Part shown: positions 25,593 through 43,612 of the stretch, piece by piece
How positions within the stretch are numbered: position 1 is the stretch's first letter
How the letters are laid out: every line of letters starts with the position of its first letter
Assembly: GCF_018885305.1 (NCBI RefSeq)
Contig: NZ_CP076544.1
Coordinates: forward strand, 3,286,001 to 3,350,000
Source of the DNA: Curtobacterium sp. L6-1
GTDB taxonomy: Bacteria > Actinomycetota > Actinomycetes > Actinomycetales > Microbacteriaceae
DNA: 64,000 nt
Reading direction: 5' to 3'
Program-made: the position numbers and the translations under genes
The notes under the pieces: generated by a model
The model's input: the letters and a program-made list of their open reading frames with translations, nothing else
What the model was told of the DNA's origin: nothing
Databases searched by the model: none

Positions 25593-25966
25593 GTCGCACG
25601 CCCTGCTGGTCGCGTCAGCCGGGGTCGCGCGTTCGGCCGGTCGCGTCCGCCGAGGTCGCGCGTTCGGCCGGTCGCGTCCGCCGGGGTCGCACAACACGCC
25701 GCTCGCGTCCGCCGAGGTTGCACGGTCGGTCGATTGGCCGGGTCGGGGGTGGCGGTTCGTGCGACGTCGGCGGCCCGCCCGCGGTGTGTTGCGCGACGTC
25801 GGCGCCTGCGTGCGGGCGTGTGGTGGTGCGGTGGCCGTCGTGGGCGGGGTCGCAGGACCTGCCGCTCGCGTTCGCCGAGGTCGCACGTTCGGTCGGTTGG
25901 CCGGGTCGGGGGTGGCGGTTCGTGCGACGTCGGCGGCTGGCCTGCGGCGTGTTGTGCGACTTCGGC
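25593..25966. repeat. GTCGCRC-box dyad repeat, locus A (two elements plus a 31-bp ladder)
   Basis: GTCGCRC boxes start at 25593, 25624, 25655, 25686 and (as GTTGCAC) 25717, each 31 bases apart. The last is followed after 35 bases by inverted GTGCGAC at 25759 and by a second inverted box about 32 bases on. A second element repeats this: GTCGCAG at 25849, GTCGCAC at 25880, a 35-base centre, GTGCGAC at 25922 and GTGCGAC 32 bases later. The centres of the two elements are nearly identical. No coding sequence is supported here; the rest of the gap to 26122 is an almost pure G/C tract. Confidence 0.8.
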
Positions 25967-26122
25967 CCGCGCCGGGCCCGGCCGCGCCCCGCCGCGCGCC
26001 GCGCGCCCCGCGCCGGGCCCTGCCCCGGGCCCCGCCCCGCGCAGGGCCCCGCCCCGCCGCGCGCGCCGCGCGCCGCGCGCGCCCAACCGCCCCGCGCCCC
26101 GCGCCCCGCGGCCCAGCGGACG

Positions 26123-27403
26123 TCAGACCGAAGCGCGCCAGTCGTCGACGTCGTCGTCGTCGTCCGCCCCGTCGATCGGCAGCGCGATGGACGACGTCGG
26201 CGGGTTGATCAGCGTCCGCTCGTCCCGGCGGTGCCGCAGCACGTCGTTGATGTACGCGGTCGTGGCCTCGGGCAGCGAGACGGACCGCTCCTCCTGCTGC
26301 GACATGAACCAGCGGTGCTCGAGCAACTCGTGGAACACCTCGGCGGGCTCGAGCCGGCCGCGCAGGTCCCGGGGGATCGCCCGCACGACGGGTTCGAACA
26401 CGCGGGAGACCCACTCGTGCGCGACCATCTCCTCGTCGAGCTCCTCGCGCCCGTTCCGCGCCCGGTAGGCGTCGAGGTCGTTGAGCAGCCGTCGCGCCTG
26501 GTTCTCCTCGGCGTCGAGGCCGGTCAGGCGCAGCAGGCGTCGCTGGTGGTGGCCGGCGTCGACGACCTTCGGCTGGATGCGGACCTGCGCGCCGGACTCG
26601 GCCGTGCGGATCGACAGCTCCTCGATGTCGAAGCCGAGGGCGTTCAGCCGCTCGACGCGGTCGTTGATGCGCCAGCGCTCGGCGGCGTCGAACTGCTCGG
26701 TGCCGGTCAGCTCCTTCCAGAGCGTGCGGTACTGGGCGACGATGCGGTTGGACACGTCCACGGGGTCGGCGTTCTCGTCGAGTCGGCCGCCCGCCTCGAG
26801 GTCGAGCAGCTCCCCGGCGATGTTGACGCGCGCCACCTCGAGGTCGTTCTCGCGCTGCCCGTTCGACAGGCCGCCCGGGTAGAGCTTGCCGGTCTCGGCG
26901 TCGACCAGGTACGCGGCGAAGGAGCCCGCGTCGCGCCGGAACAGCGTGTTCGACAGCGAGACGTCGCCCCAGTAGAAGCCGATGACGTGCAGGCGGACGA
27001 GCAGCAGCGCGAGGGCGTCGACCAGGCGCGTGGCCGTGTCGGGCCGCAGCGTCTGCGAGTACAGCGCACGGTAGGGGAGCGAGAAGCGCAGGTGCCGCGT
27101 GACGAGGACGGGCTGGAGCTCCTCGCCCTCGCGTCCGATGCGGTTCGTGATGACCGCGACGGGGTCGACGCAGGGCACGTCCGTGCGCTGCAGGGTGCGG
27201 AGCATGTCGTACTCGGACCGCGCGAGCTCGGCGCTGGTCTCCTTGACCGCCACGACGTACCCGGAGAGGTGCACGAACCGCACGAGGTGCCGCGAGATGC
27301 CCTTCGGCAGCGCGACGATCGTCTCGTCGGGCCACGCGTCGAGGGGCAGGTCCCACGGCAGGTCGAGCAGGCCGGGGTCGACGGTGGCGGCGGTGATGGT
27401 CAT
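26123..27403 (-). CDS. DUF4032 protein with kinase-like N-terminal domain
   Basis: A 426-residue actinobacterial protein. The N-terminal half reads like a lipopolysaccharide-kinase/aminoglycoside phosphotransferase fold: LSGYVVAVKETS with a candidate Lys, then LVRLHVIGFYWGDVSLSNTLF, a catalytic-loop-like Asp-x5-Asn motif, and the metal-binding-like YLVDAETG. The C-terminal half matches DUF4032 in style (WRINDRVERLNALGFDIEE, EVFHELLEHRWFMSQQ). The very C-terminus is acidic. The substrate is unknown. The ATG at 27403 is preferred; a GTG four codons upstream is possible. It lies downstream of the sugar ABC ATPase gene on the same strand, separated by two hairpins. Confidence 0.8.
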   Translation of the reverse strand: MTITAATVDPGLLDLPWDLPLDAWPDETIVALPKGISRHLVRFVHLSGYVVAVKETSAELARSEYDMLRTLQRTDVPCVDPVAVITNRIGREGEELQPVLVTRHLRFSLPYRALYSQTLRPDTATRLVDALALLLVRLHVIGFYWGDVSLSNTLFRRDAGSFAAYLVDAETGKLYPGGLSNGQRENDLEVARVNIAGELLDLEAGGRLDENADPVDVSNRIVAQYRTLWKELTGTEQFDAAERWRINDRVERLNALGFDIEELSIRTAESGAQVRIQPKVVDAGHHQRRLLRLTGLDAEENQARRLLNDLDAYRARNGREELDEEMVAHEWVSRVFEPVVRAIPRDLRGRLEPAEVFHELLEHRWFMSQQEERSVSLPEATTAYINDVLRHRRDERTLINPPTSSIALPIDGADDDDDVDDWRASV

Positions 27404-27450
27404 GGAGTCGGGCACGACTGGGTCCTCGGGTGCTCGGCGGTGGGTCTGCC

Positions 27451-27492
27451 GGACGGGAGGCGCGGCACGGGTCGTGGACGCGCCTCCCGTCC
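27451..27492. terminator. 14-bp perfect hairpin upstream of the DUF4032 gene
   Basis: GGACGGGAGGCGCG (27451) and its exact complement (27479) enclose a 14-base loop. It sits in the leader of the DUF4032 gene, after the terminator of the ABC gene, and could act as a second terminator or an attenuator. Confidence 0.6.
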
Positions 27493-27507
27493 GACAGGTG
27501 GAACGGC

Positions 27508-27549
27508 GGGAGCCCGCCACCCGCCTGGTGCGGCGGCTGGCGGGCTCCC
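27508..27549 (-). terminator. Terminator of the sugar ABC ATPase gene
   Basis: GGGAGCCCGCCA (27508) pairs perfectly with TGGCGGGCTCCC (27538), just past the stop at 27561 on the minus strand. Confidence 0.7.
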
Positions 27550-27560
27550 GGTGGTGCTGG

Positions 27561-28661
<1,101 letters not shown>

Positions 28662-28924
28662 GAGCGTTCGGTCCTCTCCACCGGCAGGTACGTGCCGGAC
28701 GATCCGTTGTGAAGCGGCGACCCGCGAGGGCCGGCGGATGGTCGCCGTCGACCATCGCTGTTCATACAACACGAGTTCTCGGGTCCGCGCCACTGGTTCC
28801 CTGCTGGTCGTCCACCGGTTGCCTGCTGGTTGGCTGGTTCCCATCGGCCGCCACTACAATCGCCGGGTCCGTCCGCCGACCGGGGGGAGGCCGAGCGGAC
28901 ACCGACCAGGAGGACGACCGCACG

Positions 28925-29881
28925 ATGACCAACCGCCCCGAAGGCTCCGCCCGCGACGAGCGGAACGCACGCCGTGCCGCTGCCCGCGAGCGCGCCCAGC
29001 GCACCCGTACCCAGCAGAAGCGTCGACAGCGGGGAGCCCGCATCGGACTGCAGGTCGGGCTCGGCGTGGTCCTGGTCGCGGCGGCCACCATCGTGACGCT
29101 CGTGCTGGTCAACTCCTCCCGACCCGCCGGCCCCGGCCCGCAGTCGATGACGGACGGCGGGATCACGATCGGCACGGGGCTGAAGGCCGTCGACCCGGCA
29201 GCGTCCTCGTCGCCGTCCCCGAGTGCGACCGGCTCGGCGGACGCCGTGCGCATCACGCTCTACGTCGACTACCTCTGCCCGATCTGCGGTGCCTTCGAGC
29301 AGACGAACAGCGACTACCTCGAGGGGCTCGTGACCTCGGGCGCCGCGACCCTCGACATCCACCCGATCGCGATCCTGTCGAACCGCTCGCAGGGCACGAA
29401 GTACTCGCTCCGCGCCGCGAACGCCGCGGCCTGCGTCGCCGAGGAGTCGCCGGACTCGTTCTTCGCCGTGAACCGCGCCCTGTTCGCGAAGCAGCCGGAG
29501 GAGGGCACGCCCGGGCTCACCGACCAGCAGCTCGCCGACGTGGTGACGAGCGTCCCCGGGGTCCGCAAGGGCTCCACGATCGAGTCGTGCATCGAGGACC
29601 AGCGCTACGGCAAGTGGGTGGACGAGCAGACCACCGCGGTGACCGGCGGCGACATCCCGGGCTCCGACCTGACCGAGTTCCCGGGGACGCCGCTCGTGCT
29701 CGTGAACGGGCAGCAGTACCCGTACTCGACGGCGTCCACCAACGACGAGTTCCGCACGTTCGTGGTCAGCGCCGCCGGTGCCACCGAGGCGACGCCGACC
29801 CCGACGCCGAGCAGCACGCCGACCCGCTCCGCCCGCCCGACCCGCACGCCGACGCCGTCCCCCTCGGCCAGCGCCCGCTGA
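28925..29881 (+). CDS. Membrane-anchored DsbA-like thioredoxin-fold protein
   Basis: A 318-residue protein: a basic N-terminus of ~45 residues, one membrane anchor at about 47-67, a Ser/Pro linker, then a DsbA/Thioredoxin_4 domain with the active-site CPIC in YVDYLCPICGAFEQ, and a cis-Pro region in EFPGTPLVLVNG. The C-terminus is a Thr/Pro/Ser tail of about 35 residues. It is probably an extracytoplasmic thiol oxidoreductase. A CAGGAGGAC ribosome site precedes the ATG. It is divergent from the ABC ATPase gene, across a 263-base gap with no other gene. Confidence 0.85.
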   Translation: MTNRPEGSARDERNARRAAARERAQRTRTQQKRRQRGARIGLQVGLGVVLVAAATIVTLVLVNSSRPAGPGPQSMTDGGITIGTGLKAVDPAASSSPSPSATGSADAVRITLYVDYLCPICGAFEQTNSDYLEGLVTSGAATLDIHPIAILSNRSQGTKYSLRAANAAACVAEESPDSFFAVNRALFAKQPEEGTPGLTDQQLADVVTSVPGVRKGSTIESCIEDQRYGKWVDEQTTAVTGGDIPGSDLTEFPGTPLVLVNGQQYPYSTASTNDEFRTFVVSAAGATEATPTPTPSSTPTRSARPTRTPTPSPSASAR

Positions 29882-29911
29882 CCGCCCGCGGGGACGCCCG
29901 AGGCGCGCCGG

Positions 29912-30805
29912 TCAGAGCTGCGAGCCGGAGACGCTGAGGGTGTCGCAGCGCGACGCGCCCTGCTCGTAACCCCGCTCGAACCAGCGCTGCCGCTGCTCGC
30001 TCGTGCCGTGCGTGAACGAGTCGGGGTCCACCCGGCCGGTGGCCCGCTCCTGGATGCTGTCGTCACCGACGGCGCTCGCCGCGGACAGGGCGTCGGCGAC
30101 CTGGGCCTGCGTGATCGGCTCGAAGAAGGTCGTGCCGTTCGCGGACTCCGTTGTGGCCGCGTCCCCGACCCAGGCACCCGCGTAACAGTCCGCCTGCAGC
30201 TCGACCCGGACGCTGTCCGACGCGGCGCCGCCACCGCTGCGGTCGGTCTCGGCGAACGTGCCCTGCAGCTGCTGCACGTGGTGCCCCCACTCGTGCGCGA
30301 CGACGTACATCTGCGCGAGCGGCCCACCGGACGCCCCGTAGGTGCGCTGCAGGTCGTCGTAGAAGTCGGTGTCCAGGTAGATCGCGCGGTCCGGCGGGCA
30401 GTAGAACGGTCCCGTCGCCGCCGAGGCCGCTCCGCACCCGGTGTCGGTCGACCCGGTGAACAGGTAGAAGTCCGGCGTCGTGTACGACGTCCCGAGCGCC
30501 CGGGCCTCCGTCGTCCAGTACGCGTCGAGCGACTCGGCGGCGCCCTCCATGCGACACGAGACGTCGGCGTTCGCGTCGCGGCCGGTGCGGCACTCCTGGA
30601 CGGGCTCGGCCTGCTGACCGCCGTCCTGGATCGTGGTCAGCCCGTCCCCGCCGCCGACCAGCCCGGTGAGGTCGACGCCGGTGAACTGCGCGATGAGGAA
30701 CACGACGATCGCGCCGACACCGACCGCGCCACCGCCGATCGCCGTGGTGCGACCGCGCCGCTTGACCTTGCCGCCGCTGAGCTGCGAGTCGTCGTTGAAC
30801 GTCAT
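29912..30805 (-). CDS. YpfJ-family neutral zinc metallopeptidase
   Basis: A 297-residue protein with one N-terminal membrane anchor (about 24-45) and an extracytoplasmic domain. The zincin motif is VVAHEWGHHVQ (HExxH), followed about 40 residues later by ELQADCYAGAW, the conserved Glu-x4-Cys region of the YpfJ family. Cys pairs (ECRTG/SCRME, GCGA/FYCPPDRA) suggest disulphides, fitting the neighbouring DsbA-like gene, which converges on it with a 30-base gap. The substrate is unknown. Confidence 0.88.
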   Translation of the reverse strand: MTFNDDSQLSGGKVKRRGRTTAIGGGAVGVGAIVVFLIAQFTGVDLTGLVGGGDGLTTIQDGGQQAEPVQECRTGRDANADVSCRMEGAAESLDAYWTTEARALGTSYTTPDFYLFTGSTDTGCGAASAATGPFYCPPDRAIYLDTDFYDDLQRTYGASGGPLAQMYVVAHEWGHHVQQLQGTFAETDRSGGGAASDSVRVELQADCYAGAWVGDAATTESANGTTFFEPITQAQVADALSAASAVGDDSIQERATGRVDPDSFTHGTSEQRQRWFERGYEQGASRCDTLSVSGSQL

Positions 30806-30894
30806 GCACCGAACCTACGGACGCGCTCCGGGACACGCACACGACCGGGTGCCCGCCGGTGACACCGTGCGTTCCCCGGAGTAGACCGGGGCGC

Positions 30895-31836
30895 ATGCCG
30901 ATCCTCGACGAGACCCACCCCCTCTTCCTGTTCGCGATGGACCAGCGGTCCTCGCTCCTCGAGCACACCTACGACGAGGACTCCGGCGAGCCCGCCGACG
31001 AGGCCGAGGCGCAGCGGGTCCGTGCCGGCAAGCAGCTCGTCTACCGCGGGGTGCTCAACGCCCTCGCGGCGGGGGCGGCGCGCGAGCACACCGGTGTCCT
31101 GGTCGACGAGCGGTACGGCGCGGACGTCGCCCGGCTCGCCAAGGAGGCGGGGCTCCAGCTCGCGATGCCGGTGGAGCGGTCGGGCCGCGAGTGGTTCGAG
31201 CTCGAGTACGGCGACGACTGGGTCGCGCACGTGGACGCGTTCGACCCGGACTGGGTGAAGGTCCTGGTCCGCGACAACCCGGCCTTCGACGCGGACCGTC
31301 GCGCGCAGCAGGCGTCCGACCTGGCCGCCGTCGCGCGCACCCTGCACGACGCCGGTCGCCCCTTCCTGGTCGAACTGCTCGTGCCCGGGACCGACGAGCA
31401 GCAGGCCTCGGTCGAGGACTACGACCGCGATCTCCGCCCCGACCTCGTCGTGCAGGTGCTCGAGTACCTGCAGGACCACGGTGTCGAGGCCGACGTGTGG
31501 AAGCTCGAGGGACTCGACCGCCGCGAGGACGCCGAGCGCGTCGTCGCCACCGCCCGCCGGGACGGCCGCGACGCCGTGCAGTGCATCGTCCTCGGCCGGG
31601 ACGCCCCGCAGGAGCAGCTCGACGGCTGGCTGCGCACGGCCGCCTCGGTCGACGGGTTCGTCGGCTTCGCGATCGGCCGCAGCAACTGGGAGGAGCCGCT
31701 CGAGGACGTCGTCCGCGAGCACCTGGACACCGAGGCCGCCGAGCAGCTCGTCGCGGCGAACTACCGGCACTTCGTCGACACCTGGCTGGAGGCCCGTGGC
31801 GGCGTCGACCACGGGGTGGACGCCGGCGCGGTCTGA
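30895..31836 (+). CDS. DUF2090-domain protein (IolC C-terminal/aldolase-like)
   Basis: A 313-residue protein. It opens PLFLFAMDQRSSL and contains HTGVLVDERYG, PDWVKVLVRDNP, FLVELLVPGT, VWKLEGLDRREDAE and GFVGFAIGRSNWEEPL, typical of the DUF2090 domain that forms the C-terminal part of IolC-type proteins in inositol catabolism. A (beta/alpha)8 aldolase-like fold is expected. The N-terminal kinase part of IolC is absent, so it stands alone. TAGACC lies seven bases before the ATG, consistent with a leaderless start. Confidence 0.75.
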   Translation: MPILDETHPLFLFAMDQRSSLLEHTYDEDSGEPADEAEAQRVRAGKQLVYRGVLNALAAGAAREHTGVLVDERYGADVARLAKEAGLQLAMPVERSGREWFELEYGDDWVAHVDAFDPDWVKVLVRDNPAFDADRRAQQASDLAAVARTLHDAGRPFLVELLVPGTDEQQASVEDYDRDLRPDLVVQVLEYLQDHGVEADVWKLEGLDRREDAERVVATARRDGRDAVQCIVLGRDAPQEQLDGWLRTAASVDGFVGFAIGRSNWEEPLEDVVREHLDTEAAEQLVAANYRHFVDTWLEARGGVDHGVDAGAV

Positions 31837-31930
31837 CGTCCGGGCGGTCACCGCGCGCGGAGGCGGCCCGCGTACCGTCGGCGGTGTCGGAACGAACGAC
31901 ACCTGTCGCACAACGGAAGGACACCGCCCC

Positions 31931-33073
31931 ATGGCCACCCCCATCCAGACCGTGATGAGCCCCGCCCGCTACGTCCAGGGCAAGGACGCCATCACCCGCG
32001 TCGGCGAGTTCGTCGCGCCCATCGGCAAGCGTCCCCTGATCGTCGCCGACGACGTCGTGTGGGGGATCGTGCAGCAGGCCGTCGAGACGAGCTTCGCCGA
32101 GGCCGACCTGCCCGTGGAGCGCGTCGGGTTCGGCCGGTTCGCCACCCCCACGGCGATCGACGACCTCGTCACCGCCATCCGTGAGCGCGACGCGGACGTG
32201 GTCGTCGGCGTCGGCGGCGGGTCCGCGATCGACGCCGCCAAGGCCGCCGGGCACCTCGCCGGCATCCGCTGGGCGAGCGTCCCGACGGCGGCGAGCACCG
32301 ACGCCCCGACCTCGGCCCTCGCCGTCGTCTACACCGACGAGGGCGAGTTCATCGAGTACCGGTTCTTCCCGCACAACCCGGACCTCGTGCTCATCGACAC
32401 GAGGCTCGTCGCGAACGCCCCCGTGCAGTTCCTCGTCGCCGGCATCGGGGACGCGCTCGCCACCTGGGTCGAGGCCCGCGCGGCTGCCCGTGCGCACGCC
32501 GACACCATGGCCGGTGGCCTGCAGACCGCCGCCGGTGTCGCGCTCGCCGAACTCTCGTGGACGCTGCTGCACGACAACGCCCTGCAGGCGATCGAGGCCG
32601 TGCGCGCGAAGGTCGTCACGCCCGCGCTCGAGAAGGTCGTCGAGGCGAACACGCTGCTCTCCGGGCTCGGCTTCGAGTCCGGTGGCCTGGCCGCCGCGCA
32701 CGCGATCCACAACGGCCTCACCGCCGCACCGCAGGCGCACGGCCTCGCCCACGGGCAGAAGGTCAACGTCGGCACGCTCGCCCAGCTCGTCATGGAGGGC
32801 GCCCCGGCCGAGGAGATCGAGGACTTCGTCGTCTTCACCACGAAGGTCGGGCTGCCGAACACCCTCACCGAGATCGGGCTGACCGTCGACGACACCGACG
32901 TGCTCCGCGCCGTCGCCGACGCCGCCACGGTCGAGTCCGAGACGATCCACAACATGCCGTTCCCGGTCACGCCGGAGATCGTCGTGGACGCCCTGGTCGC
33001 GCTCGAGGGCATCTCCCGCGGCATCCGCGCCGAGCACGGTCTGCCCGAGCCCGTCCGGTACGAGCACCACTAG
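31931..33073 (+). CDS. gldA: Glycerol dehydrogenase-like iron-containing alcohol dehydrogenase
   Basis: A 380-residue NAD-dependent polyol dehydrogenase oxidising glycerol to dihydroxyacetone in the family. The NAD loop is VGVGGGSAIDAAKAAG; the metal site includes the Asp in GIGDALATWVEAR, His in AAHAIHNGLT and His in HGLAHGQKVNVG, and the strand WASVPTAASTDAPTSALAVV is family-typical. A GGAAGGAC ribosome site precedes the ATG. It follows the DUF2090 gene after 94 bases on the same strand, which suggests a polyol-use pair. The exact polyol is not shown. Confidence 0.88.
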   Translation: MATPIQTVMSPARYVQGKDAITRVGEFVAPIGKRPLIVADDVVWGIVQQAVETSFAEADLPVERVGFGRFATPTAIDDLVTAIRERDADVVVGVGGGSAIDAAKAAGHLAGIRWASVPTAASTDAPTSALAVVYTDEGEFIEYRFFPHNPDLVLIDTRLVANAPVQFLVAGIGDALATWVEARAAARAHADTMAGGLQTAAGVALAELSWTLLHDNALQAIEAVRAKVVTPALEKVVEANTLLSGLGFESGGLAAAHAIHNGLTAAPQAHGLAHGQKVNVGTLAQLVMEGAPAEEIEDFVVFTTKVGLPNTLTEIGLTVDDTDVLRAVADAATVESETIHNMPFPVTPEIVVDALVALEGISRGIRAEHGLPEPVRYEHH

Positions 33074-33104
33074 GCACCGCCCCGGACGGGGACGGACCAG
33101 CGGG

Positions 33105-33872
33105 TCAGGTGCGGACCAGCGGCTCCACGGTCGCCAGGTCCGCACCGATCCCGACGTCGACCAGCTCGATCCGCCCGGCCAGCGTCGCCGCGGGACCCCG
33201 GAGCAGTCCCGCCTTCACACCGCCGAACGTCACCGTCACGTCGGCGTGCAGGACGTGATCGTCCGCGATGCCGCCACTGTCCACGTCGATGCCGCTCGGC
33301 ACGTCGACCGCCACCACGAACGGTGCCCGCTGGTCGCGGGCGAGCTCGCGGAGGGCCGCCACCACCTCGCGCGCGGGCGACCGCAGCGGACCGCCCCCGC
33401 CGATGCCGAGGATGCCGTCGAGCACCAGGTCCGCGTCGAGCCCGGCCTCGCGCGCGATCCGTGTCGCGCGCTCGCCGCTCGGCGGCACCGCGGCCTGCAC
33501 GATGTCGGCGGCGCCCGCCGTCGAGGAAGCGACCGACCCGTCGTCCGCAGGGTCGTCCAGGAGGCGCGCCCCCGCCTCCAGGGCTGCTGCCAGGCCCGCC
33601 TCGTGGACGCGTGCGCCGACGCGCAGGACGGCGACGTGCCTCCCGGCCGCCGCCAGGCGCGCTGCCGCGAACAGTGCGTCGCCGCCGTTGTCGCCGCTCC
33701 CCGCCAGGACGAGGGCCGAGCCGGGCCCGTCCCCGGGGCGGACCGCCGGGTCGTCGAGGAGGTCGCCGACCACCGCGGCGAGCCCGTCCGCCGCGCGCTG
33801 CATGAGGGGTTCCCCCGCCTCGAGGTGGGGGCGTTCCGCCGCCCGGATCTGGTCGCCGCCGTAGCCGTCCAT
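33105..33872 (-). CDS. nnrE: NAD(P)H-hydrate epimerase (YjeF_N family)
   Basis: It repairs damaged NAD(P)H hydrates by epimerising R to S forms. The 255-residue protein has the Rossmann-like YjeF_N fold with LVLAGSGDNGGDALFAAA, the catalytic-loop region LVLDGILGIGGGG, and VVAVDVPSGIDVDSG. The ADP-dependent dehydratase domain usually fused or linked to it is absent here. The ATG at 33872 is preferred over an upstream extension, because it leaves a 35-base divergent gap to the hydrolase gene. Confidence 0.85.
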   Translation of the reverse strand: MDGYGGDQIRAAERPHLEAGEPLMQRAADGLAAVVGDLLDDPAVRPGDGPGSALVLAGSGDNGGDALFAAARLAAAGRHVAVLRVGARVHEAGLAAALEAGARLLDDPADDGSVASSTAGAADIVQAAVPPSGERATRIAREAGLDADLVLDGILGIGGGGPLRSPAREVVAALRELARDQRAPFVVAVDVPSGIDVDSGGIADDHVLHADVTVTFGGVKAGLLRGPAATLAGRIELVDVGIGADLATVEPLVRT

Positions 33873-33907
33873 GCCTGCCACTGTGGCCGCACTACCCTGG
33901 ACGGGCC

Positions 33908-34693: not shown

Positions 34694-34747
34694 CGGGTAC
34701 TCGTGGGCCCTCCCGCCGCGGAGGCGGCCGGGCGTAGCGTCCGCCGC

Positions 34748-35779: not shown

Positions 35780-35822
35780 CCGGGTCGGCCGCTGACCGGG
35801 TCGGCCGCTGACCGGGCCGGCC
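35775..35822. repeat. Three 16-bp tandem repeats over the reductase stop codon
   Basis: GCTGACCGGGTCGGCC occurs at 35775 and 35791, and with one change at 35807. The first copy contains the stop codon of the aldo/keto reductase gene. The array ends 14 bases before the tRNA-Thr gene. Confidence 0.8.
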
Positions 35823-35836
35823 GCGGGCCTCCTGAG

Positions 35837-35909
35837 GGCCGGCAGCGGGACTTGAACCCGCAACCCCCGTATTACAAGTACGGTGCGCTACCAATTGCGC
35901 CATGCCGGC
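35837..35909 (-). tRNA. tRNA-Thr (anticodon TGT)
   Basis: On the minus strand a full cloverleaf reads from GCCGGCA at 35909 to TGCCGGC plus discriminator C at 35837. The acceptor stem is seven perfect pairs. The anticodon arm is CCGTA-CTTGTAA-TACGG (anticodon TGT), and the T arm is GCGGGTTCAAGTCCCGC. CCA is not encoded. Confidence 0.93.
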
Positions 35910-35935
35910 TGACCCGCCCATCGTACCGGGCGGAC

Positions 35936-35976
35936 ACGACGACGGCGCCCGGGCTCAGCCCGGGCGCCGTCGTCGT
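35936..35976. terminator. 20-bp perfect hairpin after msrB
   Basis: 35936-35955 is the exact reverse complement of 35957-35976, with a single central C (in practice a loop of 3-5 bases). It follows the msrB stop on the minus strand. Confidence 0.75.
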
Positions 35977-35981
35977 CCGCG

Positions 35982-36383
35982 TCACTGCTCCGCGGAGAAG
36001 TTCAGCGAGATCGAGTTCATGCAGTAGCGGTCACCCGTGGGCGTGCCGAAGCCGTCCGGGAAGACGTGGCCGAGGTGTCCGCCGCAGTTGGCGCACCGGA
36101 CCTCGGTGCGGACCATGCCGAGGGACTTGTCCTCGATGAGCTGGACGGCCTCCGGCTCGACCGACTCGTAGAACGACGGCCAGCCGCAGCCCGAGTCGAA
36201 CTTCGTGCCGCTCTTGAACAGTTCCGCACCACACGCTGCACACGTGTAGACGCCGGCACGCTCCTCGTCGAGGAGCTCGCCGGTCCACGGGCGCTCCGTC
36301 CCGGCCTGGCGCAGCACGGCGTACTGGTCCGGGGAGAGCTCCTCGCGCCACTGGGCGTCGGACTTGTCGACGTTGTATGCCAT
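35982..36383 (-). CDS. msrB: Peptide methionine-(R)-S-oxide reductase
   Basis: It reduces methionine-R-sulfoxide in proteins. The 133-residue enzyme has both zinc CxxC pairs (CAACG and CANCG), the substrate motif SGCGWPSFYESV, the HLGHVFPDG His box, and the catalytic Cys in RYCMNSISLNF. A good ribosome site (AGGAGGTACGCAC) precedes the ATG. Confidence 0.95.
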   Translation of the reverse strand: MAYNVDKSDAQWREELSPDQYAVLRQAGTERPWTGELLDEERAGVYTCAACGAELFKSGTKFDSGCGWPSFYESVEPEAVQLIEDKSLGMVRTEVRCANCGGHLGHVFPDGFGTPTGDRYCMNSISLNFSAEQ

Positions 36384-36456
36384 GTGCGTACCTCCTGGTT
36401 CCGACCGGGGCTCGTGACCGCCGGTGATCGTGCGTCACACCAGTAAACTCCGAGCG

Positions 36457-36933
36457 ATGTCCGAGCATTCCGTCCGCCGTGCCCGCTGGGGCGACCTGAC
36501 GACCGACGAGCTCTACGACGTCGTCCGGCTGCGCAACCGGGTGTTCGCGCTCGAGCAGCGCGTCTCCGCCGAGGACTTCGACGGCCGCGACCGCGAGCCC
36601 GACACCGAGCACTGGTGGGTCTCGCGCGCCGACGCCGGGACCGTCGGGTACCTCCGTCTGGTCCGGCCGGCGGACGGCGAGCCGCACCCGGCCGACACCG
36701 CCGACCCCACCCGGGTGATCGGCCGTGTCGCCACCCACCCGGACCACCGCGGGCAGGGCATCGCCGGTCGCCTGGTCGCGGCGGCGGTCGAGGCCCACGG
36801 GCACGGCGCGATGGTCCTGCACGCCCAGCAGTACGTCGCCGGCCTGTACGAGCGCCACGGGTTCGTCCGCTTCGGCGCCCCCTACGACGAGGCCGGCATC
36901 ACCCACGTCGGCATGTACCGCGCCGGCTCCTGA
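36457..36933 (+). CDS. ElaA-type GNAT acetyltransferase
   Basis: A 158-residue single GNAT domain. N-terminal LYDVVRLRNRVFALEQR is typical of ElaA; the acetyl-CoA loop is VIGRVATHPDHRGQGIAGRLV; the C-terminal segment is LYERHGFVRFG. The substrate is unknown. TAAACT (36444-36449) ends seven bases before the ATG, so the message is probably leaderless. Its stop overlaps the next start by one base. Confidence 0.88.
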   Translation: MSEHSVRRARWGDLTTDELYDVVRLRNRVFALEQRVSAEDFDGRDREPDTEHWWVSRADAGTVGYLRLVRPADGEPHPADTADPTRVIGRVATHPDHRGQGIAGRLVAAAVEAHGHGAMVLHAQQYVAGLYERHGFVRFGAPYDEAGITHVGMYRAGS

Positions 36934-38033
36934 TGGACACACGGGAGCGCTACCGCGCCTACGCCGAGCGGGTCGCGTCCGTCTCGCCGACCTACGCCGC
37001 GTGGGCGCGCTCGGTCGACGACGCCCTCGTCGCCCTCCTCGACGCGGTGCCCCCGACGAAGCGCCAACCGGAACTGCTCTTCGCGGTCGCCCGACGGCTC
37101 GGCGCCGACCCGTCCGACCCGGCAGCGCTCCGCGCCCTCGGACGGGAGGCCCGCCCCGCGCTGGTCGCGGCCCTCACCACCGCCACGGTGCAGGCCAACG
37201 ACCCGCGACGGCTCGCCCCGGTGGTCCCGGTCCTCGCCGCGCTGTCGGCGGCCTCGGACCGGCCGCTCGGGCTGGTCGACGTGGGCGCCGCCGCCGGACT
37301 GTGCTCGATCCCGGACCGGGTCACGCTCGACCATCGTGTCGTGCGCGACCACCGTGTCGTGCTCGGCCAGGTTGCGTCCGGGGATGCCGGGTCGGAGTGC
37401 GCCGGGTCCGGGGCCGGAGTCGAGGGTGCCGGGTCCGGGATCGCCGGGACGCGCCTCGTGCGGGTGCACACCGCGGTCGCCGGGCCGGCCGTGCACCTCG
37501 TCGCGGAGGTCACCGGTGACCCACCGGCCCCCGCCGCCACGTCGATCCGGATCGGAGCGCGGATCGCGCTCGACCCGAACCCGATCGACCCCGCGGCACC
37601 GGGAGCGCTCGACCGCCTGGCCGAGGCGGTCCCGCCCGAGGCGACGGACCGGACCGCCCTGATGCGGGACGCGTTGCGGGCGACGCTGGTGGAGCCTCCC
37701 GTCCGGATCCGCGGCATCGTGCCGGACGACCTGGACCGGGCGCTCGACGCCGTGCCGGACGGCTGCGAGCCCGTCGTCCTCACCACCGGCACGCTCGTCT
37801 ACGTGCCGGGTGCCGGACGGCAGCGGCTGGTCGATCGGCTGCGCGAGCGCGACGTGCGGTGGGTGGCGCTCGAGCGCACCGGCGTCCTGACGGAGGTGGC
37901 GGCGACGCTGCCCGACGACGTCGACGCGGCGGACCCGGACGCCTTCGCGACGCTCTCGCTCGACGGCCGGGCGCTCGCCGTGTCCGATCCGTTCGGCACC
38001 CGCGTCCGCTGGTTCCCGTCGACGACCGCCTGA
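36933..38033 (+). CDS. DUF2332 family protein
   Basis: A 366-residue actinobacterial protein of unknown function. LGLVDVGAAAGLC looks like the first strand and loop of a methyltransferase-type Rossmann fold, and DPNPIDPAAPGALDRL with the C-terminal RVRWFPS are family-typical. A Gly/Ala/Ser-rich insertion (about residues 148-168) holds three near repeats of Gly-Ala/Ser-Gly and is probably a flexible loop. It is coupled to the acetyltransferase gene by a one-base overlap. Confidence 0.8.
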   Translation: MDTRERYRAYAERVASVSPTYAAWARSVDDALVALLDAVPPTKRQPELLFAVARRLGADPSDPAALRALGREARPALVAALTTATVQANDPRRLAPVVPVLAALSAASDRPLGLVDVGAAAGLCSIPDRVTLDHRVVRDHRVVLGQVASGDAGSECAGSGAGVEGAGSGIAGTRLVRVHTAVAGPAVHLVAEVTGDPPAPAATSIRIGARIALDPNPIDPAAPGALDRLAEAVPPEATDRTALMRDALRATLVEPPVRIRGIVPDDLDRALDAVPDGCEPVVLTTGTLVYVPGAGRQRLVDRLRERDVRWVALERTGVLTEVAATLPDDVDAADPDAFATLSLDGRALAVSDPFGTRVRWFPSTTA

Positions 38034-38152
38034 CCGGCACGCGCGGCCGGGGCTGAGCGGGTTCTGCGACAGTCCAGCGCCGTGCCAGGGTCGACCTGCC
38101 GGACGCCCCTACGATGTGCGAGACCTGCAACCCGTCCGTGATCGGAGCCCGA

Positions 38153-38452
38153 GTGACCGCGCTGCCCGCCGACGAGCTCACCGAGCTCGCCAAGCACGTG
38201 CTCGCGTTCGAGCACGAGCGCGCGCGGCACGACCGGACGAAGGAAGCCGAGATCCGGGTCGAGTTCGACATGTCGCCGACGCGGTACTACCAGGTGCTCA
38301 ACCAGGTCATCGACACCCCGGCGGCCCTCGCACACGACCCGCAGCTCGTCACCCGGCTGCAGCGTCTCCGCCACGCCCGGACGAGCGCCCGGGCTGCCCG
38401 CAGCTTCGTCGCGCCCGCGGCCGACCACGAAGGACGTGAAGAGGAACGATGA
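38153..38452 (+). CDS. DUF3263 family protein
   Basis: A small (99 residues from this GTG) mostly helical protein with FEHERARHDRTKEAEIRVEF and MSPTRYYQVLNQVIDTPAAL, the DUF3263 core, which looks like a helix-turn-helix. The tail is basic. The GTG at 38153 is preferred because a TACGAT -10-like box at 38109-38114 would put the transcript start after the alternative ATG at 38114. The last codons overlap the start of the LytR_C gene. Confidence 0.7.
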   Translation: MTALPADELTELAKHVLAFEHERARHDRTKEAEIRVEFDMSPTRYYQVLNQVIDTPAALAHDPQLVTRLQRLRHARTSARAARSFVAPAADHEGREEER

Positions 38453-39066
38453 CGAGATTCCCGCGAGACCGGTTCGACGACGTCCCCGAGGGGCCCCGGA
38501 TCGGCGCGCACCGCGGTGCTGCCCGACGTGGCGGCGGCTGGGTCGTCTTCGCCTGGGCCGCGCTCGCGACCGGCGTGCTGGTCGGCGTCGGTGTGCTCGT
38601 GCTCAACCTCCTCAACGGCAGCGTCCAGTTCCCGGAGGGCGGCGGCAGCACGAAGCCGTCGGCCTCGTCGACGCCCACGCCGAGCGCGTCGACCGGTGGC
38701 TCCGCCTCCGACGCTCCCGCTCCGGGTGACGGTGCCGCCGCGCCGACGCAGTCCCCGTCCGCGCCCACCGGTGCCGCGCCCGCCGACCAGGGTGCGACGA
38801 CGCTCGTCGTGCTGAACGGGACCTCCACCTCGGGCCTGGCGGCGAACGCGTCGGCGAAGCTCGCGGGTGCCGGGTGGACCGTGACCTCGACCGGGGACGC
38901 CGGCACCACCGGGTCGACGCAGACGATCGTCTACTACCAGCAGGCGTCGCAGGCGGCCCTCGCGCAGGGCATCGCGCAGTCGCTCGGCGTCACCGCCGTG
39001 CAGCAGTCGTCCGCCTTCCCGAACGCCGACGTGTCGGTCGTGCTCGGGGCGGACTACAGCGGCTGA
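38449..39066 (+). CDS. LytR C-terminal domain (LytR_C) membrane protein
   Basis: A 205-residue protein: a charged cytoplasmic N-terminus, one membrane anchor at about 31-53, a low-complexity Ser/Thr/Pro/Ala linker (about 65-115), and a C-terminal LytR_C domain beginning TTLVVLNGTSTSGLA and ending VSVVLGADYSG. LytR_C is found in cell-envelope proteins, but here the catalytic LytR-CpsA-Psr domain is absent. It is translationally coupled to the DUF3263 gene (ATGA). Confidence 0.82.
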   Translation: MTRFPRDRFDDVPEGPRIGAHRGAARRGGGWVVFAWAALATGVLVGVGVLVLNLLNGSVQFPEGGGSTKPSASSTPTPSASTGGSASDAPAPGDGAAAPTQSPSAPTGAAPADQGATTLVVLNGTSTSGLAANASAKLAGAGWTVTSTGDAGTTGSTQTIVYYQQASQAALAQGIAQSLGVTAVQQSSAFPNADVSVVLGADYSG

Positions 39067-39142
39067 TCGGCCCGATCGCGGGTCCCGTGTTTCCGGCACG
39101 TTGCAGATCGGGGCCCGCGGCGTGAAATGCGGGTCACACCTC

Positions 39143-39171
39143 TTGCCGAAATGCTGACTGTCCGTCAGAGT
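39143..39171 (+). promoter_or_regulatory. Probable promoter of the cold-shock gene, with long leader
   Basis: TTGCCG (39143) and CAGAGT (39166) are separated by 17 bases. The transcript would have a leader of about 140 bases before the ATG at 39320, as is usual for cold-shock genes. The 253-base gap holds no gene. Confidence 0.45.
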
Positions 39172-39237
39172 CAGCGGTGGTCACCCCGTGATCGTGACGA
39201 TGCCTCGACCCGAGGACCGTCGCCGCGGCCCGGGTGA

Positions 39238-41412
<2,175 letters not shown>

Positions 41413-41428
41413 TCCGTCTGCTCGGCAC

Positions 41429-41460
41429 GGGCCCCCGCACGCTTCGGCGTGCGGGGGCCC
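41429..41460 (+). terminator. groEL terminator with TTCG tetraloop
   Basis: GGGCCCCCGCACGC, loop TTCG, and the perfect complement, followed by TTCC. Confidence 0.85.
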
Positions 41461-41553
41461 TTCCGCGTGCGCGGCGCGAGGGCTCGCAGGCGGGCTGGCG
41501 GGGGCGGGCCGGCCGGCGGGGGCCGGGGTGTGCTGGGTCGCGTGCGCTGGTCG

Positions 41554-42066
41554 CCGAGGGCGCGCGTTCGGCCGCCGGTGCGCGCTCGGCCCGGCACGTC
41601 GTGCGACCTCGGCGGAGGCCCGGCGGCGGGTCGTGCGACCCGGCTGCCCGTGCCGCCCTCGCCCCGGTCGGGCGGGCACGCTCGGGCCGGCCCCGTGCCG
41701 AGGTCGCGCGTTCTGCCGCCGGTGCGCGCTCGGCCCGGCACGTCGTGCGACCTCGGCGGAGGCCCGGCGGCGGGTCGTGCGACCCGGCCGTCCGTGCCGC
41801 CCTCGCCCCGGTCGGGCGGACGGAATGCTCGGGCTGGCCCCGTGCCGAGGTCGCGCGTTCTGCCGCCGGTGCGTGCTCGGCTCGGCACGTCGTGCGACCT
41901 CGGCGGAGGCCCGGCGGCGGGTCGTGCGACCCGGCCGCCCGTGCCGCCCTCGCCCCGGTCGGGCGGGCGGAACGCTCGGGCTGGCCCCGTGCCGAGGTCG
42001 CGCGTTCTGCCGCCCGTGCGCGCTCGGCCCGGCACGTCGTGCGACCCCGGCGGCGGGTCGTGCGAC
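41554..42066. repeat. GTCGCRC-box dyad repeat, locus B (four tandem 144-147-bp units)
   Basis: Units start at 41554, 41698, 41845 and 41992 (steps 144, 147, 147). Each opens CCGAGGTCGCGCG (first copy with G for T), and after a 35-base centre has GTGCGAC (41601, 41745, 41892, 42039). A second GTGCGAC is 32 bases later in the first three units and 21 bases later in the decayed last one. Unit lengths are multiples of three, so long spurious frames run through it. I see no gene here; the gap between groEL and the DUF559 gene is 790 bases. Confidence 0.85.
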
Positions 42067-42202
42067 CCGAGCCGCGGGCACTCGGCACAGACGACCTCGG
42101 CGCTCGGGCTACGCGTCCCTGCACAGGAGGCTCCTCCCGCCGTCTTCTCCACAGGGTCACGGAAAACTCCCGCCGTCGCCCCGGCTGCTCGAGACTCCGG
42201 TG

Positions 42203-43084
42203 ATGGTGAAGCCACGTCCGTTGCCCGAGCCCTTCGCTGCTGGCGCGTTCCTGGTCCGAGATGCACTCGCGGCGGGGGTGGACCCAGGGCGGCTCCGACG
42301 ACTCGACCTGCAACGCCCCGTCCACGGGGTCCGGGTCAGGGCTGAGGAGGACGTGACGATGGTCGGGGCGCTCATGCCGCTCCTCCGGTCCGACCAGTTC
42401 TTCAGCCACACCACCGCCGCCGGGCTCTGGGGAGCGCCGCTCCCGCAACGCGTCCAGTTGGGGGTGCACGTGTCGACCGCAGGGCATGCCGCGCTCATGC
42501 GACGACCCGGCGTCATCGGGCACCGTGCTGCAGCGGACGTCGCGACGACCATGGCGTTCGGGGCGCGCCTCAGCACGCCCGAGCGGAGTTGGTGGGAGTG
42601 CGCTTCGGTCCTCACCGTCCGGGAGCTCGTCGCCGTCGGGGATGCCCTCGTCGGCAGGGCGGGCTTGACGACGATCGACGGACTGGCAGCGGCGCTCCTC
42701 CGCGGGCATCGGTACGTGACGGTCGCACGAGCCGCATTGGAGCTCGTGCGGGTCGGTGCGGAATCAGCGATGGAGACGTGGTTCCGGCTCGCCGTCGTCG
42801 ACGCCGGGTTCCCGGAGCCGGAGTTGAACGTCGACGTCCACGACGCCGACGGGGTCTTCCTCGGCCGCGTGGACATGGCCTGGCCCGAGTTCCGCATCGC
42901 CTTCGAGTACGACGGCGATCACCACCGGGAGCGGGAGGTGTTCCGGCACGACCATCGGCGCGACAACGGGTTCGTCGTGAACGACTGGTTGGTGGTGCAC
43001 GCCACAGCCCTCGATGCCGCCCGCCCTGCCTTGGTCTTCGAGCGGCTCCGGCAGGCGTTCGAGGCTCGCCGCCGGGGTGCCTGA
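42203..43084 (+). CDS. DUF559 endonuclease-like protein with AbiEi-type N-terminal region
   Basis: A 293-residue protein. The N-terminal ~75 residues (FLVRDALAAGVDPGRLRRLDL and the strand PVHGVRVR) resemble the winged-helix-like AbiEi domain often fused to DUF559 in actinobacteria. The C-terminal ~100 residues look like the Vsr/DUF559 restriction-endonuclease fold: LGRVDMAWPEFRIAFEYDGD supplies a D...E-x-D-type acidic cluster, followed by HHREREVFRHDHRRDN and DWLVVHATA. TTG, CGA and other less GC-biased codons are more frequent than in neighbours, a sign of transfer. The gene lies between repeat arrays B and C. The large frame continuing upstream to 41396 is repeat, not gene. Nuclease activity is inferred only. 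Confidence 0.75.
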   Translation: MVKPRPLPEPFAAGAFLVRDALAAGVDPGRLRRLDLQRPVHGVRVRAEEDVTMVGALMPLLRSDQFFSHTTAAGLWGAPLPQRVQLGVHVSTAGHAALMRRPGVIGHRAAADVATTMAFGARLSTPERSWWECASVLTVRELVAVGDALVGRAGLTTIDGLAAALLRGHRYVTVARAALELVRVGAESAMETWFRLAVVDAGFPEPELNVDVHDADGVFLGRVDMAWPEFRIAFEYDGDHHREREVFRHDHRRDNGFVVNDWLVVHATALDAARPALVFERLRQAFEARRRGA

Positions 43085-43144
43085 CCCCTCGCGCCGCCGG
43101 TTGCCGATCTGACTCCGGCTTCTGGCTCCGGCTTCTGGCTCTGA

Positions 43145-43612
43145 GTCGCAGGACGTGCCGCACGGTGACCGTCGAGGTCGCACGGGCTGCTGCTGGAAAC
43201 GGGGATGGGCGGCAGATCACGTGACTGCGGCGCGAGCGGGGCGGCAGTTCGCGCGATGTCGGCGTCGTCACGGCGGGTGACCCGCTCGACCACCGGGTGG
43301 GAGGACTTCGGCGGCGCTGCCGGCCGAGATCGCGGGACTTGCCGCACGTGAGTCGCCGAGGTCGCACGATGTGCTGCGGCGGGCCCCGGCGGGCAGCAGG
43401 TCGTGCGACTTCGGCGGAGGTAGGACGGCGGGGTGTGCGACCTCGGCGCTCCTGGTCGAGGTCGCGGGACTTGCCGCACGTGAGTCGCCGAGGTCGCACG
43501 ATGTGCTGCGGCGGGCCCCGCCGGGCGGCAGACTTCGTGACTTCGGCCGAGGTAGGACGGCGGGCCGTGCGACCTCGGCGCTCCTGGTCGAGGTCGCGGG
43601 ACTTGCCGCACG
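43145..43612. repeat. GTCGCRC-box dyad repeat, locus C (132-bp tandem units)
   Basis: A decayed element opens the locus (GTCGCAG at 43145, GTCGCAC at 43177). Then a 132-bp unit starts at 43326, repeats at 43458 and begins a third time at 43590. Within the first unit: ATCGCGG at 43329, GTCGCAC at 43361, a 35-base centre, GTGCGAC at 43403 and GTGCGAC at 43435. The inverted box of the second unit is damaged by a small deletion. The locus fills the gap between convergent DUF559 and histidine kinase genes. Confidence 0.85.

What the first reader, a model, noticed from the sequence alone, without database searches (positions are those of the whole stretch)
25593..43612. Dispersed repeat family with fixed dyad geometry (GTCGCRC box, 35 bases, GTGCGAC box)
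Seen directly: at three unlinked gaps (25.6-26.0, 41.55-42.07 and 43.15-43.61 kb), a forward GTCGCRC-type box is followed after exactly 35 bases by inverted GTGCGAC. This holds for 25717/25759, 25880/25922, 41559/41601, 41703/41745 and 43361/43403. A second inverted box lies 32 bases after the first in nearly all copies, and at loci A and C a second forward box lies 31-32 bases before. Spacing is kept although the 35-base centres and the 25-base fillers differ between loci. Conservation of distance over sequence suggests a structure or a protein that reads helical phase (32 bases is about three turns), not simple slippage. I know of no named family that fits; REP/BIME-like or nucleoid-organising elements are the nearest concept.
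Basis: seen in the sequence. Interest (0 to 1): 0.85.

Follow-up and report, generated by a model that had tools for sequence, protein, structure and literature searches.

The report
Nuclease gene with scattered paired repeats
In Curtobacterium bacteria, dozens of short, rigidly spaced mirror-image DNA motifs lie between genes and seem to belong to one nuclease-like gene that is itself framed by the same motifs, which resembles the known REP-transposase partnership but uses an unrelated enzyme.

Summary
The host is taken to be a Curtobacterium (3.40 Mb). An exact scan finds 42 forward GTCGCRC-N33..37-GTGCGAC dyads, 41 at N35, against 1 for the reversed-pattern control. They form about 19 arrays, mostly between convergent genes. 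Loci B and C are the two flanks of one gene (42206-43084) encoding a PD-(D/E)XK/DUF559-like protein with an AbiEi-like N terminus. Across the genus the dyads occur in at least four box classes with near-identical geometry. The class follows the nuclease gene (4 changes, the minimum, on its tree) and not the species (13 on a groEL tree). Same-class boxes flank both sides of the gene in 15 of 18 genomes, against 0 of 18 paralogue copies. The gene's class is the genome's commonest dispersed class in 13 of 17 chosen genomes (p about 1e-5). Left and right half-sites show no covariation, so the dyads are not kept as hairpins. RAYT transposases are absent (0 of 66). Best reading: a REPtron/REPIN-like partnership built on an unrelated, double-strand-reading nuclease. 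Its activity is inferred, not shown.

The parts
25593..25960 (.). Array A: solo type-1 array between convergent genes (24481-25500 + and 26123-27415 -). Forward boxes at 25593, 25624, 25655, 25686, 25717; dyads 25717/25759 and 25880/25922; outer inverted boxes 25791 and 25954
41559..42066 (.). Array B: left flank of the nuclease gene, about 150 bp 3' of groEL. Dyads 41559/41601, 41703/41745, 41850/41892, 41997/42039 with further inverted boxes 41633, 41777, 41924, 42060
42206..43084 (+). Nuclease-like gene (292 aa): AbiEi-like N-terminal part, C-terminal PD-(D/E)XK/DUF559-like motif (D223, E234-Y-D-G, H239, H240, D249, R252), flanked by arrays B and C
43177..43612 (.). Array C: right flank of the nuclease gene, before the opposite-strand gene at 43645-45360 (-). 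Boxes 43177 F, dyad 43361/43403 with outer 43435, second unit 43493 F ... 43567 R
39790..41412 (+). groEL (named from its C terminus GGMDF, a recalled motif), the conserved neighbour that marks the slot in other Curtobacterium genomes

Best explanation
The dyads are the dispersed, non-autonomous repeats of a REPtron/REPIN-like system whose partner is not a RAYT but a PD-(D/E)XK (DUF559/MTES_1575-like) nuclease with an AbiEi-like DNA-binding N terminus. SHOWN here by sequence: a rigid dyad (N31 between the CGA and TCG edges, with an optional direct copy 31/32 bp outside) whose half-sites do not covary; several box classes with nearly the same geometry; one strong copy of the nuclease gene per searched genome, framed in most by same-class boxes; class changes that follow the nuclease gene and not the species; a gene class that usually equals the genome's commonest dispersed class; the gene-plus-dyads unit found at two different chromosomal places; purifying selection on the protein. 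INFERRED: the protein binds the half-sites on double-stranded DNA as a symmetric oligomer (AbiEi antitoxins are reported to bind inverted repeats cooperatively), and its nicking or regulated cleavage lets dyads be copied or converted into intergenic sites, above all between convergent genes, where they then multiply locally by tandem duplication. When a new nuclease allele arrives, its class spreads and the older class decays. Free cutting at every dyad is unlikely, because hosts carry up to tens of them.
For: Rigid spacing: in the scan of species genomes with a free gap of 11-23, 44 of 45 dyads are N17 and 1 is N18; the records are Curtobacterium or one unclassified Microbacteriaceae. Type 2 with a free gap of 18-46: of 20 loci, one per genome, 7 of 7 at span 47 are intergenic; of 13 at other spans 12 lie inside genes and 1 is at a contig edge. 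No significant left/right covariation in any of 7 sets, smallest p 0.145. Class on the nuclease tree: 4 changes (minimum for 5 classes) against 13 on the groEL tree, 24 genomes. Same-class boxes on both sides of the gene (3 or more in all): 15 of 18 Curtobacterium, against 0 of 18 paralogue copies in 14 of these genomes, Fisher 2.9e-7; at least one box each side in 16 of 18. Gene class equals commonest dispersed class in 13 of 17, permutation mean 4.1, p about 1e-5. In G041 and G047 the only strong copy lies outside the groEL slot but is still framed by type-3 boxes, while in G002 and G040 a type-3 gene sits in the slot. A dyad-framed homologue exists in another genus (G151). dN/dS 0.15-0.28 in 12 within-class pairs. 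Catalytic-type residues invariant in 51 of 51. AbiEi model hit in 4 of 15, MTES_1575 REase in 14 of 51.
Against: No binding, cleavage or copying was observed. Dispersed copies do not share their centres (identity 0.37-0.46 in five sets), so intact copying is not visible. Many arrays occupy the same slots in several species, which looks like long residence rather than active movement. In 4 of 17 genomes the commonest class is not the gene's class (G013, G034, G053, G054); the 18 genomes were chosen by me, mostly for high copy number, the counts include the gene-flank copies, the 53-bp family 3a was not counted (in G007 it has about as many copies, 16, as type 2, 15), and the permutation ignores phylogeny. 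On the nuclease tree the type-1 group including G055 is weakly supported (49) and type 5 nests within type 3. At the groEL slot, linkage between gene and dyads could by itself give much of the class-gene match. In 3 of the 18 Curtobacterium genomes, and in G151, the homologue carries an in-frame TGA. In about 400 kb each of G150 and G151 the flank classes of the homologues have almost no dispersed copies.
Confidence: 0.68

Rival explanations
1. The nuclease-like protein is a domesticated DNA-binding or nucleoid protein. The dyads are fixed functional sites at convergent gene ends (insulator, roadblock, supercoil or domain marker), not mobile repeats.
For: Convergent placement: 15 of 19 own array gaps against 12 of 84 other gaps, Fisher 9.5e-8; no divergent site in 57 array gaps of own genome and relatives. 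Slots shared by several species. The groEL slot carries a dyad in 26 of 26 readable genomes, by my reading. Direct repeats are three helical turns apart. In the window the groEL array lies beyond a terminator-like hairpin read by eye, so it is probably not groEL's terminator.
Against: Classes replace one another at the same slot and copy number swings from 0 to about 50. Convergent gaps are also where neutral or selfish DNA survives. The nuclease-type residues are invariant in 51 of 51, which a pure binding protein would not need.
Confidence: 0.25
2. Only linkage: the nuclease gene is a passenger in an intergenic hotspot rich in dyads, and an unknown protein reads the dyads.
For: At the groEL slot the gene and dyads are a few hundred bp apart at most and would be exchanged together.
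Against: The gene is dyad-framed at a second locus (G041, G047) and in another genus (G151), where a second homologue is framed by a different dyad class. Mostly unlinked dispersed copies match the gene class in 13 of 17. The paralogue group has boxes of these classes on both sides in 0 of 18 copies.
Confidence: 0.1
3. A free-standing homing endonuclease: the dyad is its cleavage site, the gene homes into dyads, and solo dyads are target sites or scars.
For: Nuclease-type motif, a gene between two dyads, the same unit at two chromosomal places.
Against: Hosts such as G000, G037 and G047 carry tens of same-class dyads, which an active cutter would break; only one strong copy of the gene is found in each of the 18 Curtobacterium genomes searched.
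Confidence: 0.12
4. Hairpin-based elements (ordinary REPs, bidirectional terminators or structured RNA).
For: Inverted repeats near gene 3' ends.
Against: No significant left/right covariation in 7 of 7 sets, and in 5 of them the match is below expectation by 0.04-0.07 or equal to it (one set, G011, is above at p 0.145); only two tRNAs and msiK as Rfam hits in the window; no RAYT in 66 genomes; rigid N31 has no reason in a hairpin loop.
Confidence: 0.03

Closest known systems
REP/REPIN elements and REP-associated tyrosine transposases (RAYTs, REPtrons); PMC2817692 (abstract and outline read), PMC8049555 (passages read), PMC3733652 (passages read)
   Same: Enzyme gene flanked by the repeats; flanks share more 9-mers in inverted than direct orientation at 15 of 19 loci; repeats dispersed in extragenic sites as inverted pairs with a diverse spacer; repeats and enzyme co-diverge; abundance tracks the enzyme type.
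   Different: Enzyme is PD-(D/E)XK-like, no Y1/HUH transposase of PF01797 in 66 genomes; half-sites do not covary, so no hairpin is kept; rigid N31 and 31/32 spacing; AbiEi-like N terminus.
BIMEs of enterobacteria (recalled)
   Same: Alternating boxes at regular spacing in intergenic DNA, tandem multiplication.
   Different: No sequence comparison made; gyrase/IHF binding (recalled) not tested; partner gene differs.
AbiEi antitoxins (type IV toxin-antitoxin); PMC7319586 (start of abstract seen in the listing)
   Same: N-terminal similarity (AbiEi model in 4 of 15 proteins; which residues match was not printed, the N-terminal placing is recalled); AbiEi is reported to bind inverted repeats cooperatively.
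   Different: Gene stands alone between groEL and an opposite-strand gene; C terminus is nuclease-like; the repeats are genome-wide.
Spaced inverted motif pairs with variable spacer, PMC5217627 (section 13 and passages read)
   Same: Intergenic inverted motifs at fixed distance, partly between convergent genes, in unrelated bacteria, unexplained there.
   Different: In the parts read no partner gene, classes or cross-species slots are proposed; Curtobacterium is not in its Table 7.
EDxHD (Vsr-like) and PD-(D/E)XK homing endonucleases (family names from abstract starts in the listing)
   Same: Nuclease superfamily type and a gene between copies of its presumed site.
   Different: No intron, intein or single target; up to tens of sites in the host itself.

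Membership tests
REP/REPIN-RAYT (REPtron) | RAYT (Y1_Tnp, PF01797) encoded in the genome | tested here: not met
   0 of 66 Curtobacterium genomes; the same search rings in 5 of 14 control genomes
REP/REPIN-RAYT (REPtron) | enzyme gene flanked by two repeats in inverted orientation | tested here: met
   same-class boxes on both sides in 15 of 18 Curtobacterium, 0 of 18 paralogue copies; more shared 9-mers inverted than direct in 15 of 19. Met for this gene, which is not a RAYT
REP/REPIN-RAYT (REPtron) | repeats and enzyme co-diverge | tested here: met
   4 class changes on the nuclease tree against 13 on the groEL tree, 24 genomes
REP/REPIN-RAYT (REPtron) | abundance of the cognate repeat tracks the enzyme type | tested here: met
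   13 of 17 genomes, p about 1e-5, 4 discordant, 1 tie left out
REP/REPIN-RAYT (REPtron) | repeat pair kept as a hairpin (complementary arms) | tested here: not met
   arms complementary at the box level, but variable positions do not covary significantly within a genome in any of 7 sets
REP/REPIN-RAYT (REPtron) | GTAG or CGTC terminal tag | not tested
   no dedicated test
REP/REPIN-RAYT (REPtron) | extragenic location | tested here: met
PD-(D/E)XK nuclease superfamily (DUF559/MTES_1575) | profile match | tested here: inconclusive
   14 of 51 homologues match PF18741 (best 8e-6), 2 of 51 DUF559; the window protein matches neither at 0.01
PD-(D/E)XK nuclease superfamily (DUF559/MTES_1575) | conserved acidic/basic active-site residues | tested here: met
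   D223, E234, D236, H239, H240, D249 and R252 in 51 of 51; their role as active site is by resemblance (recalled)
PD-(D/E)XK nuclease superfamily (DUF559/MTES_1575) | fold | not testable with these tools
   structure prediction busy, then switched off
Homing endonuclease | cleaves a site that lacks the element and inserts there | not testable with these tools
   needs enzyme assay
AbiE toxin-antitoxin | co-transcribed AbiEii toxin gene | tested here: inconclusive
   gene stands alone in the window gene map: groEL upstream, opposite-strand gene downstream; the neighbours were not profiled for AbiEii
BIME | binding by gyrase or IHF | not testable with these tools
   no binding data

The most novel reading that the evidence does not exclude
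A previously undescribed kind of bacterial repeat-enzyme partnership, convergent with REP-RAYT but evolved on a double-strand-DNA nuclease: an AbiEi-like/PD-(D/E)XK protein that reads rigidly phased half-sites, keeps a population of up to tens of dyads in the chromosome of Curtobacterium, and whose alleles sweep through the genus, each converting the population to its own box class. Dyad-framed homologues with other box classes in a second and possibly a third genus suggest a family-wide system.
Probability: 0.5. Interest if true: 0.88.

Novelty: new variant of a known kind. Interest (0 to 1): 0.78.

Why it matters
REP elements and RAYTs have no counterpart with an unrelated enzyme in what I found (the listings of searches showed no such report). 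A second, independently built system would show that 'single enzyme gene plus dispersed repeat population' is a general strategy. It also gives a natural experiment: at least four nuclease types with four box classes among 66 genomes, from which the DNA-recognition code could be read, and a direct test of why such repeat populations persist and sit between convergent genes.

Tried and rejected
Hairpin/RNA reading: no significant covariation, only two tRNAs and msiK in Rfam. RAYT: absent. Chance: reversed-pattern controls are 0 or 1 per genome (in the family scan two of 398 genomes gave one control hit per strand). Decayed coding repeats: arrays lie in gaps between called genes. A recurrent neighbour gene at every array: none seen; most repeated neighbours look like orthologues at shared slots, and the EYDGDHH-type motif was found at 3 of the 42 named relative loci, 0 of 15 own stretches, and in the window. 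Helical phase beyond the fixed spacings: no independent signal. An exact-arm scan of unbiased flanks (57 flanks, two slots) recovered the class dyad in 20 of 26 groEL flanks by my count; its inner-gap histogram alone was not decisive because arm lengths vary. Dispersed copies of the flank classes of G150/G151 homologues: almost none in 799 kb. Class-specific residues in the nuclease: difference spread over residues 15-200, no clear determinant. Homologues on plasmids or phages: 4 plasmid and 1 phage record, all under 36% identity; array B has no match in phages. An earlier Fisher test used 14 of 18 and counted two arrays of one gap twice; corrected (15 of 18; 15 of 19 gaps). Rows dropped: 4 of 30 groEL loci (L094, L099, L102 cut short; L107 run of N); G013 and G034 from the tree because my motif search did not extract the protein; G044 (tie) from the concordance test; near-duplicate tandem units from the sets (30 of about 40 type-1 copies; 10 of 12, 11 of 15, 9 of 16 and 14 of 19 type-2; 15 of 16 and 16 of 19 type-3). 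Class labels were assigned by me from flank reading, with degenerate boxes in G053, G032 and G055 judged to be types 2, 2 and 1. Strict-pattern copy counts are lower bounds. Loci L021-L062 were chosen by the pattern, so their spacing within the scanned range is informative only through the free gap.
Full report
WHAT IS THERE. The window is 3286001-3350000 of a 3.40 Mb single-contig genome. A named scan of species genomes with the inner dyad finds only Curtobacterium records and contigs of one unclassified Microbacteriaceae bacterium, so the host is taken to be a Curtobacterium. The exact pattern GTCGCRC-N33..37-GTGCGAC has 42 forward hits in the genome, 41 at N35 and 1 at N37, against 1 for the reversed pattern; one of the 42 lies in a called gene and looks like chance. 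The rest form about 19 arrays of one to several units. The full unit is outer F -32- inner F -42- inner R -32- outer R; many units lack one outer box. The half-site is GCCGAGGTCGCACGA-WSK-GCCGC.

SPACING OVER SEQUENCE. In the species-genome scan the gap was free from 11 to 23; 44 of 45 dyads were N17 and one was N18. Within the genome the centre shows mean identity 0.40, against 0.84 for the box. Direct repeats at 31/32 equal three helical turns; outside the 31/32 and 42 values there is no independent phase signal.

NOT A HAIRPIN. At variable arm positions the left and right half-sites do not match significantly better than after permuting right halves within the genome, in any of 7 sets: type 1 n=30, four type-2 sets n=9-14, two type-3a sets n=15-16; permutation p from 0.145 (G011) to 0.99. 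In the 30 type-1 dyads the match was lower than expected (0.436 against 0.479). I read this as half-sites recognised independently on double-stranded DNA.

CONTEXT. Own genome, by gap: 15 of 19 array gaps are convergent, 4 co-directional, 0 divergent; of 84 other gaps of 40 bp or more in the same stretches 12 are convergent, 43 co-directional, 29 divergent (Fisher for convergent 9.5e-8). In the 42 pattern-selected loci of relatives there are 43 arrays: 26 convergent, 13 co-directional, 0 divergent, 4 at edges. Many arrays sit at the same gene pair in several species, for example six loci at one slot and five at another.

SEVERAL BOX CLASSES, ONE GEOMETRY. At the groEL 3' flank, 26 of 30 loci are readable; I read a dyad in all 26, in different classes; a strict exact-arm scan recovers 20 of them. 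Type 1 is GAGGTCGCACGA, type 2 GGTCACGA, type 3b GAGGTTCC, type 4 GAGATCGCACTT; L095 carries a further class (type 5). Types 1 and 2 share N31; listed type-4 dyads have span 55 or 56; type 3b was scanned at 54-55. Genus scans of 66 genomes: strict type 1 in 23, type 2 at any gap of 18-46 in 45 (this includes matches inside genes), type 3b in 19, type 4 in 18. In the type-2 scan, of 20 loci, one per genome, 7 of 7 with span 47 are intergenic; of 13 with other spans 12 lie inside genes and 1 at a contig edge. Copy number per genome ranges from 0 to 49 (type 4, G037), 39 (type 3b, G047), 19 (type 2, G012) and 17 (type 1, G050). Strict type 1 was found in 4 of 299 genomes of a family sample, all four in the genus. 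A degenerate pattern for types 1, 3b, 4 and 5 matches 24 of 398 family genomes: 7 of 10 Curtobacterium, several members of two other genera (g3: 9, 5, 5 and 1 copies, listed span 59; g5: 4, 3, 2, 1 and 1), and eight genomes of other genera with one hit each.

THE PARTNER GENE. Between arrays B and C lies a 292-aa gene (42206-43084). Its homologues at the groEL slot cluster by the class of the adjacent dyad. On the nuclease tree the classes need 4 changes, the minimum for five classes; on the groEL tree of the same 24 genomes they need 13. The type-1 group including G055 has weak support (49), and type 5 nests in type 3. A profile search of 18 Curtobacterium genomes that I chose finds one strong copy in each (bits above 400), and 18 copies of a weaker paralogue group (about 227-264 bits) in 14 of them. 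Same-class boxes, at least three in all, lie on both sides of the strong copy in 15 of 18 (at least one box per side in 16 of 18; exceptions G052 and G022), and on both sides of the paralogue in 0 of 18 copies (Fisher 2.9e-7). In G041 and G047 the strong copy is at another locus, still framed by type-3 boxes, while their groEL slots keep type-3 dyads without it; G002 and G040 have a type-3 gene in the slot. In G041's slot a type-2 unit appears to be cut in its middle by type-3 sequence (by eye), which points to replacement by recombination or insertion rather than slow change. In G151, another genus, one homologue is framed by GAGATCGCAC dyads (the right one degenerate) and a second by GTGAGGTGCC dyads; in G150 some homologues have other inverted boxes nearby (read by eye).

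GENOME-WIDE LINK. Leaving out G044 (tie), the class at the gene equals the genome's commonest dispersed class in 13 of 17 genomes, against 4.1 expected by permutation, p about 1e-5 (counts). The misses are G013, G034, G053 and G054, as if an older class outlived a replaced gene. The 53-bp family 3a was left out of these counts, and phylogeny was not controlled.

THE PROTEIN. Residues D223, E234-Y-D-G237, H239, H240, D249 and R252 are invariant in 51 of 51 homologues. PF18741 (MTES_1575 restriction-endonuclease-like) matches 14 of 51 and DUF559 2 of 51, the window protein neither. PADLOC's AbiEi model matches 4 of 15 (best 1.6e-4) and its ZorE (HNH) model 5 of 15 (best 8.1e-4). Some sources call homologues very-short-patch-repair endonuclease, endonuclease domain-containing or DUF559 protein. 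dN/dS for 12 within-class pairs is 0.15-0.28, so the protein is maintained; 3 of 18 Curtobacterium copies (G008, G022, G050) and that of G151 contain an in-frame TGA.

HOW IT PROBABLY WORKS. Shown: geometry, classes, partner gene, co-divergence. Inferred: the N terminus binds half-sites, two or more subunits bridge the dyad on one face of the helix, and a regulated nuclease activity promotes copying or conversion of dyads, with local tandem growth by slippage or recombination (units within an array are often near-identical). Convergent gaps are where such insertions do least harm, or where a binding site is useful; the data do not separate these.

KNOWN OR NEW. [quoted passage not shown] The enzyme, the apparent double-strand reading and the rigid spacing differ, and PF01797 is absent from 66 of 66 genomes. 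Ten paper searches listed no report of this system in the open library; subscription papers are not covered. I file it as a new variant of a known kind.

Noticed in passing
G007, G009, G012 and others: A separate 53-bp dyad family (GAGGTTCC-N7-GTGCGA ... TCGCAC-N7-GGAACCTC) with up to about 19 copies per genome; in the nine span-53 loci examined it is co-directional in 5, convergent in 2, divergent in 1 and inside a called gene in 1, so perhaps an operator family.
   Followed up: partly
L202, L222-L225 (G150, G151): Other homologues of the nuclease in two other Microbacteriaceae genera have their own inverted boxes nearby (TCGGTCCC, GATTCACC, GCTCGGTC, CGAGTGGG types, read by eye), mostly without dispersed copies in the 400 kb sampled from each genome.
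   Followed up: partly
G008, G022, G050, G151: The nuclease homologue carries an in-frame TGA in these genomes while the dyads persist.
   Followed up: no
L192/L191 compared with L103/L113: In G041 and G047 the gene unit sits outside the groEL slot, while the slot keeps dyads without the gene.
   Followed up: partly
window 28666-28725 (-): msiK cis-regulatory RNA (Rfam RF01747, 58.2 bits) upstream of the gene at 27561-28661.
   Followed up: no
L097, L101, L112, L117, L121: In the five type-4 genomes read at the groEL slot the nuclease gene is in the opposite orientation to that in the other genomes where it was found there.
   Followed up: no
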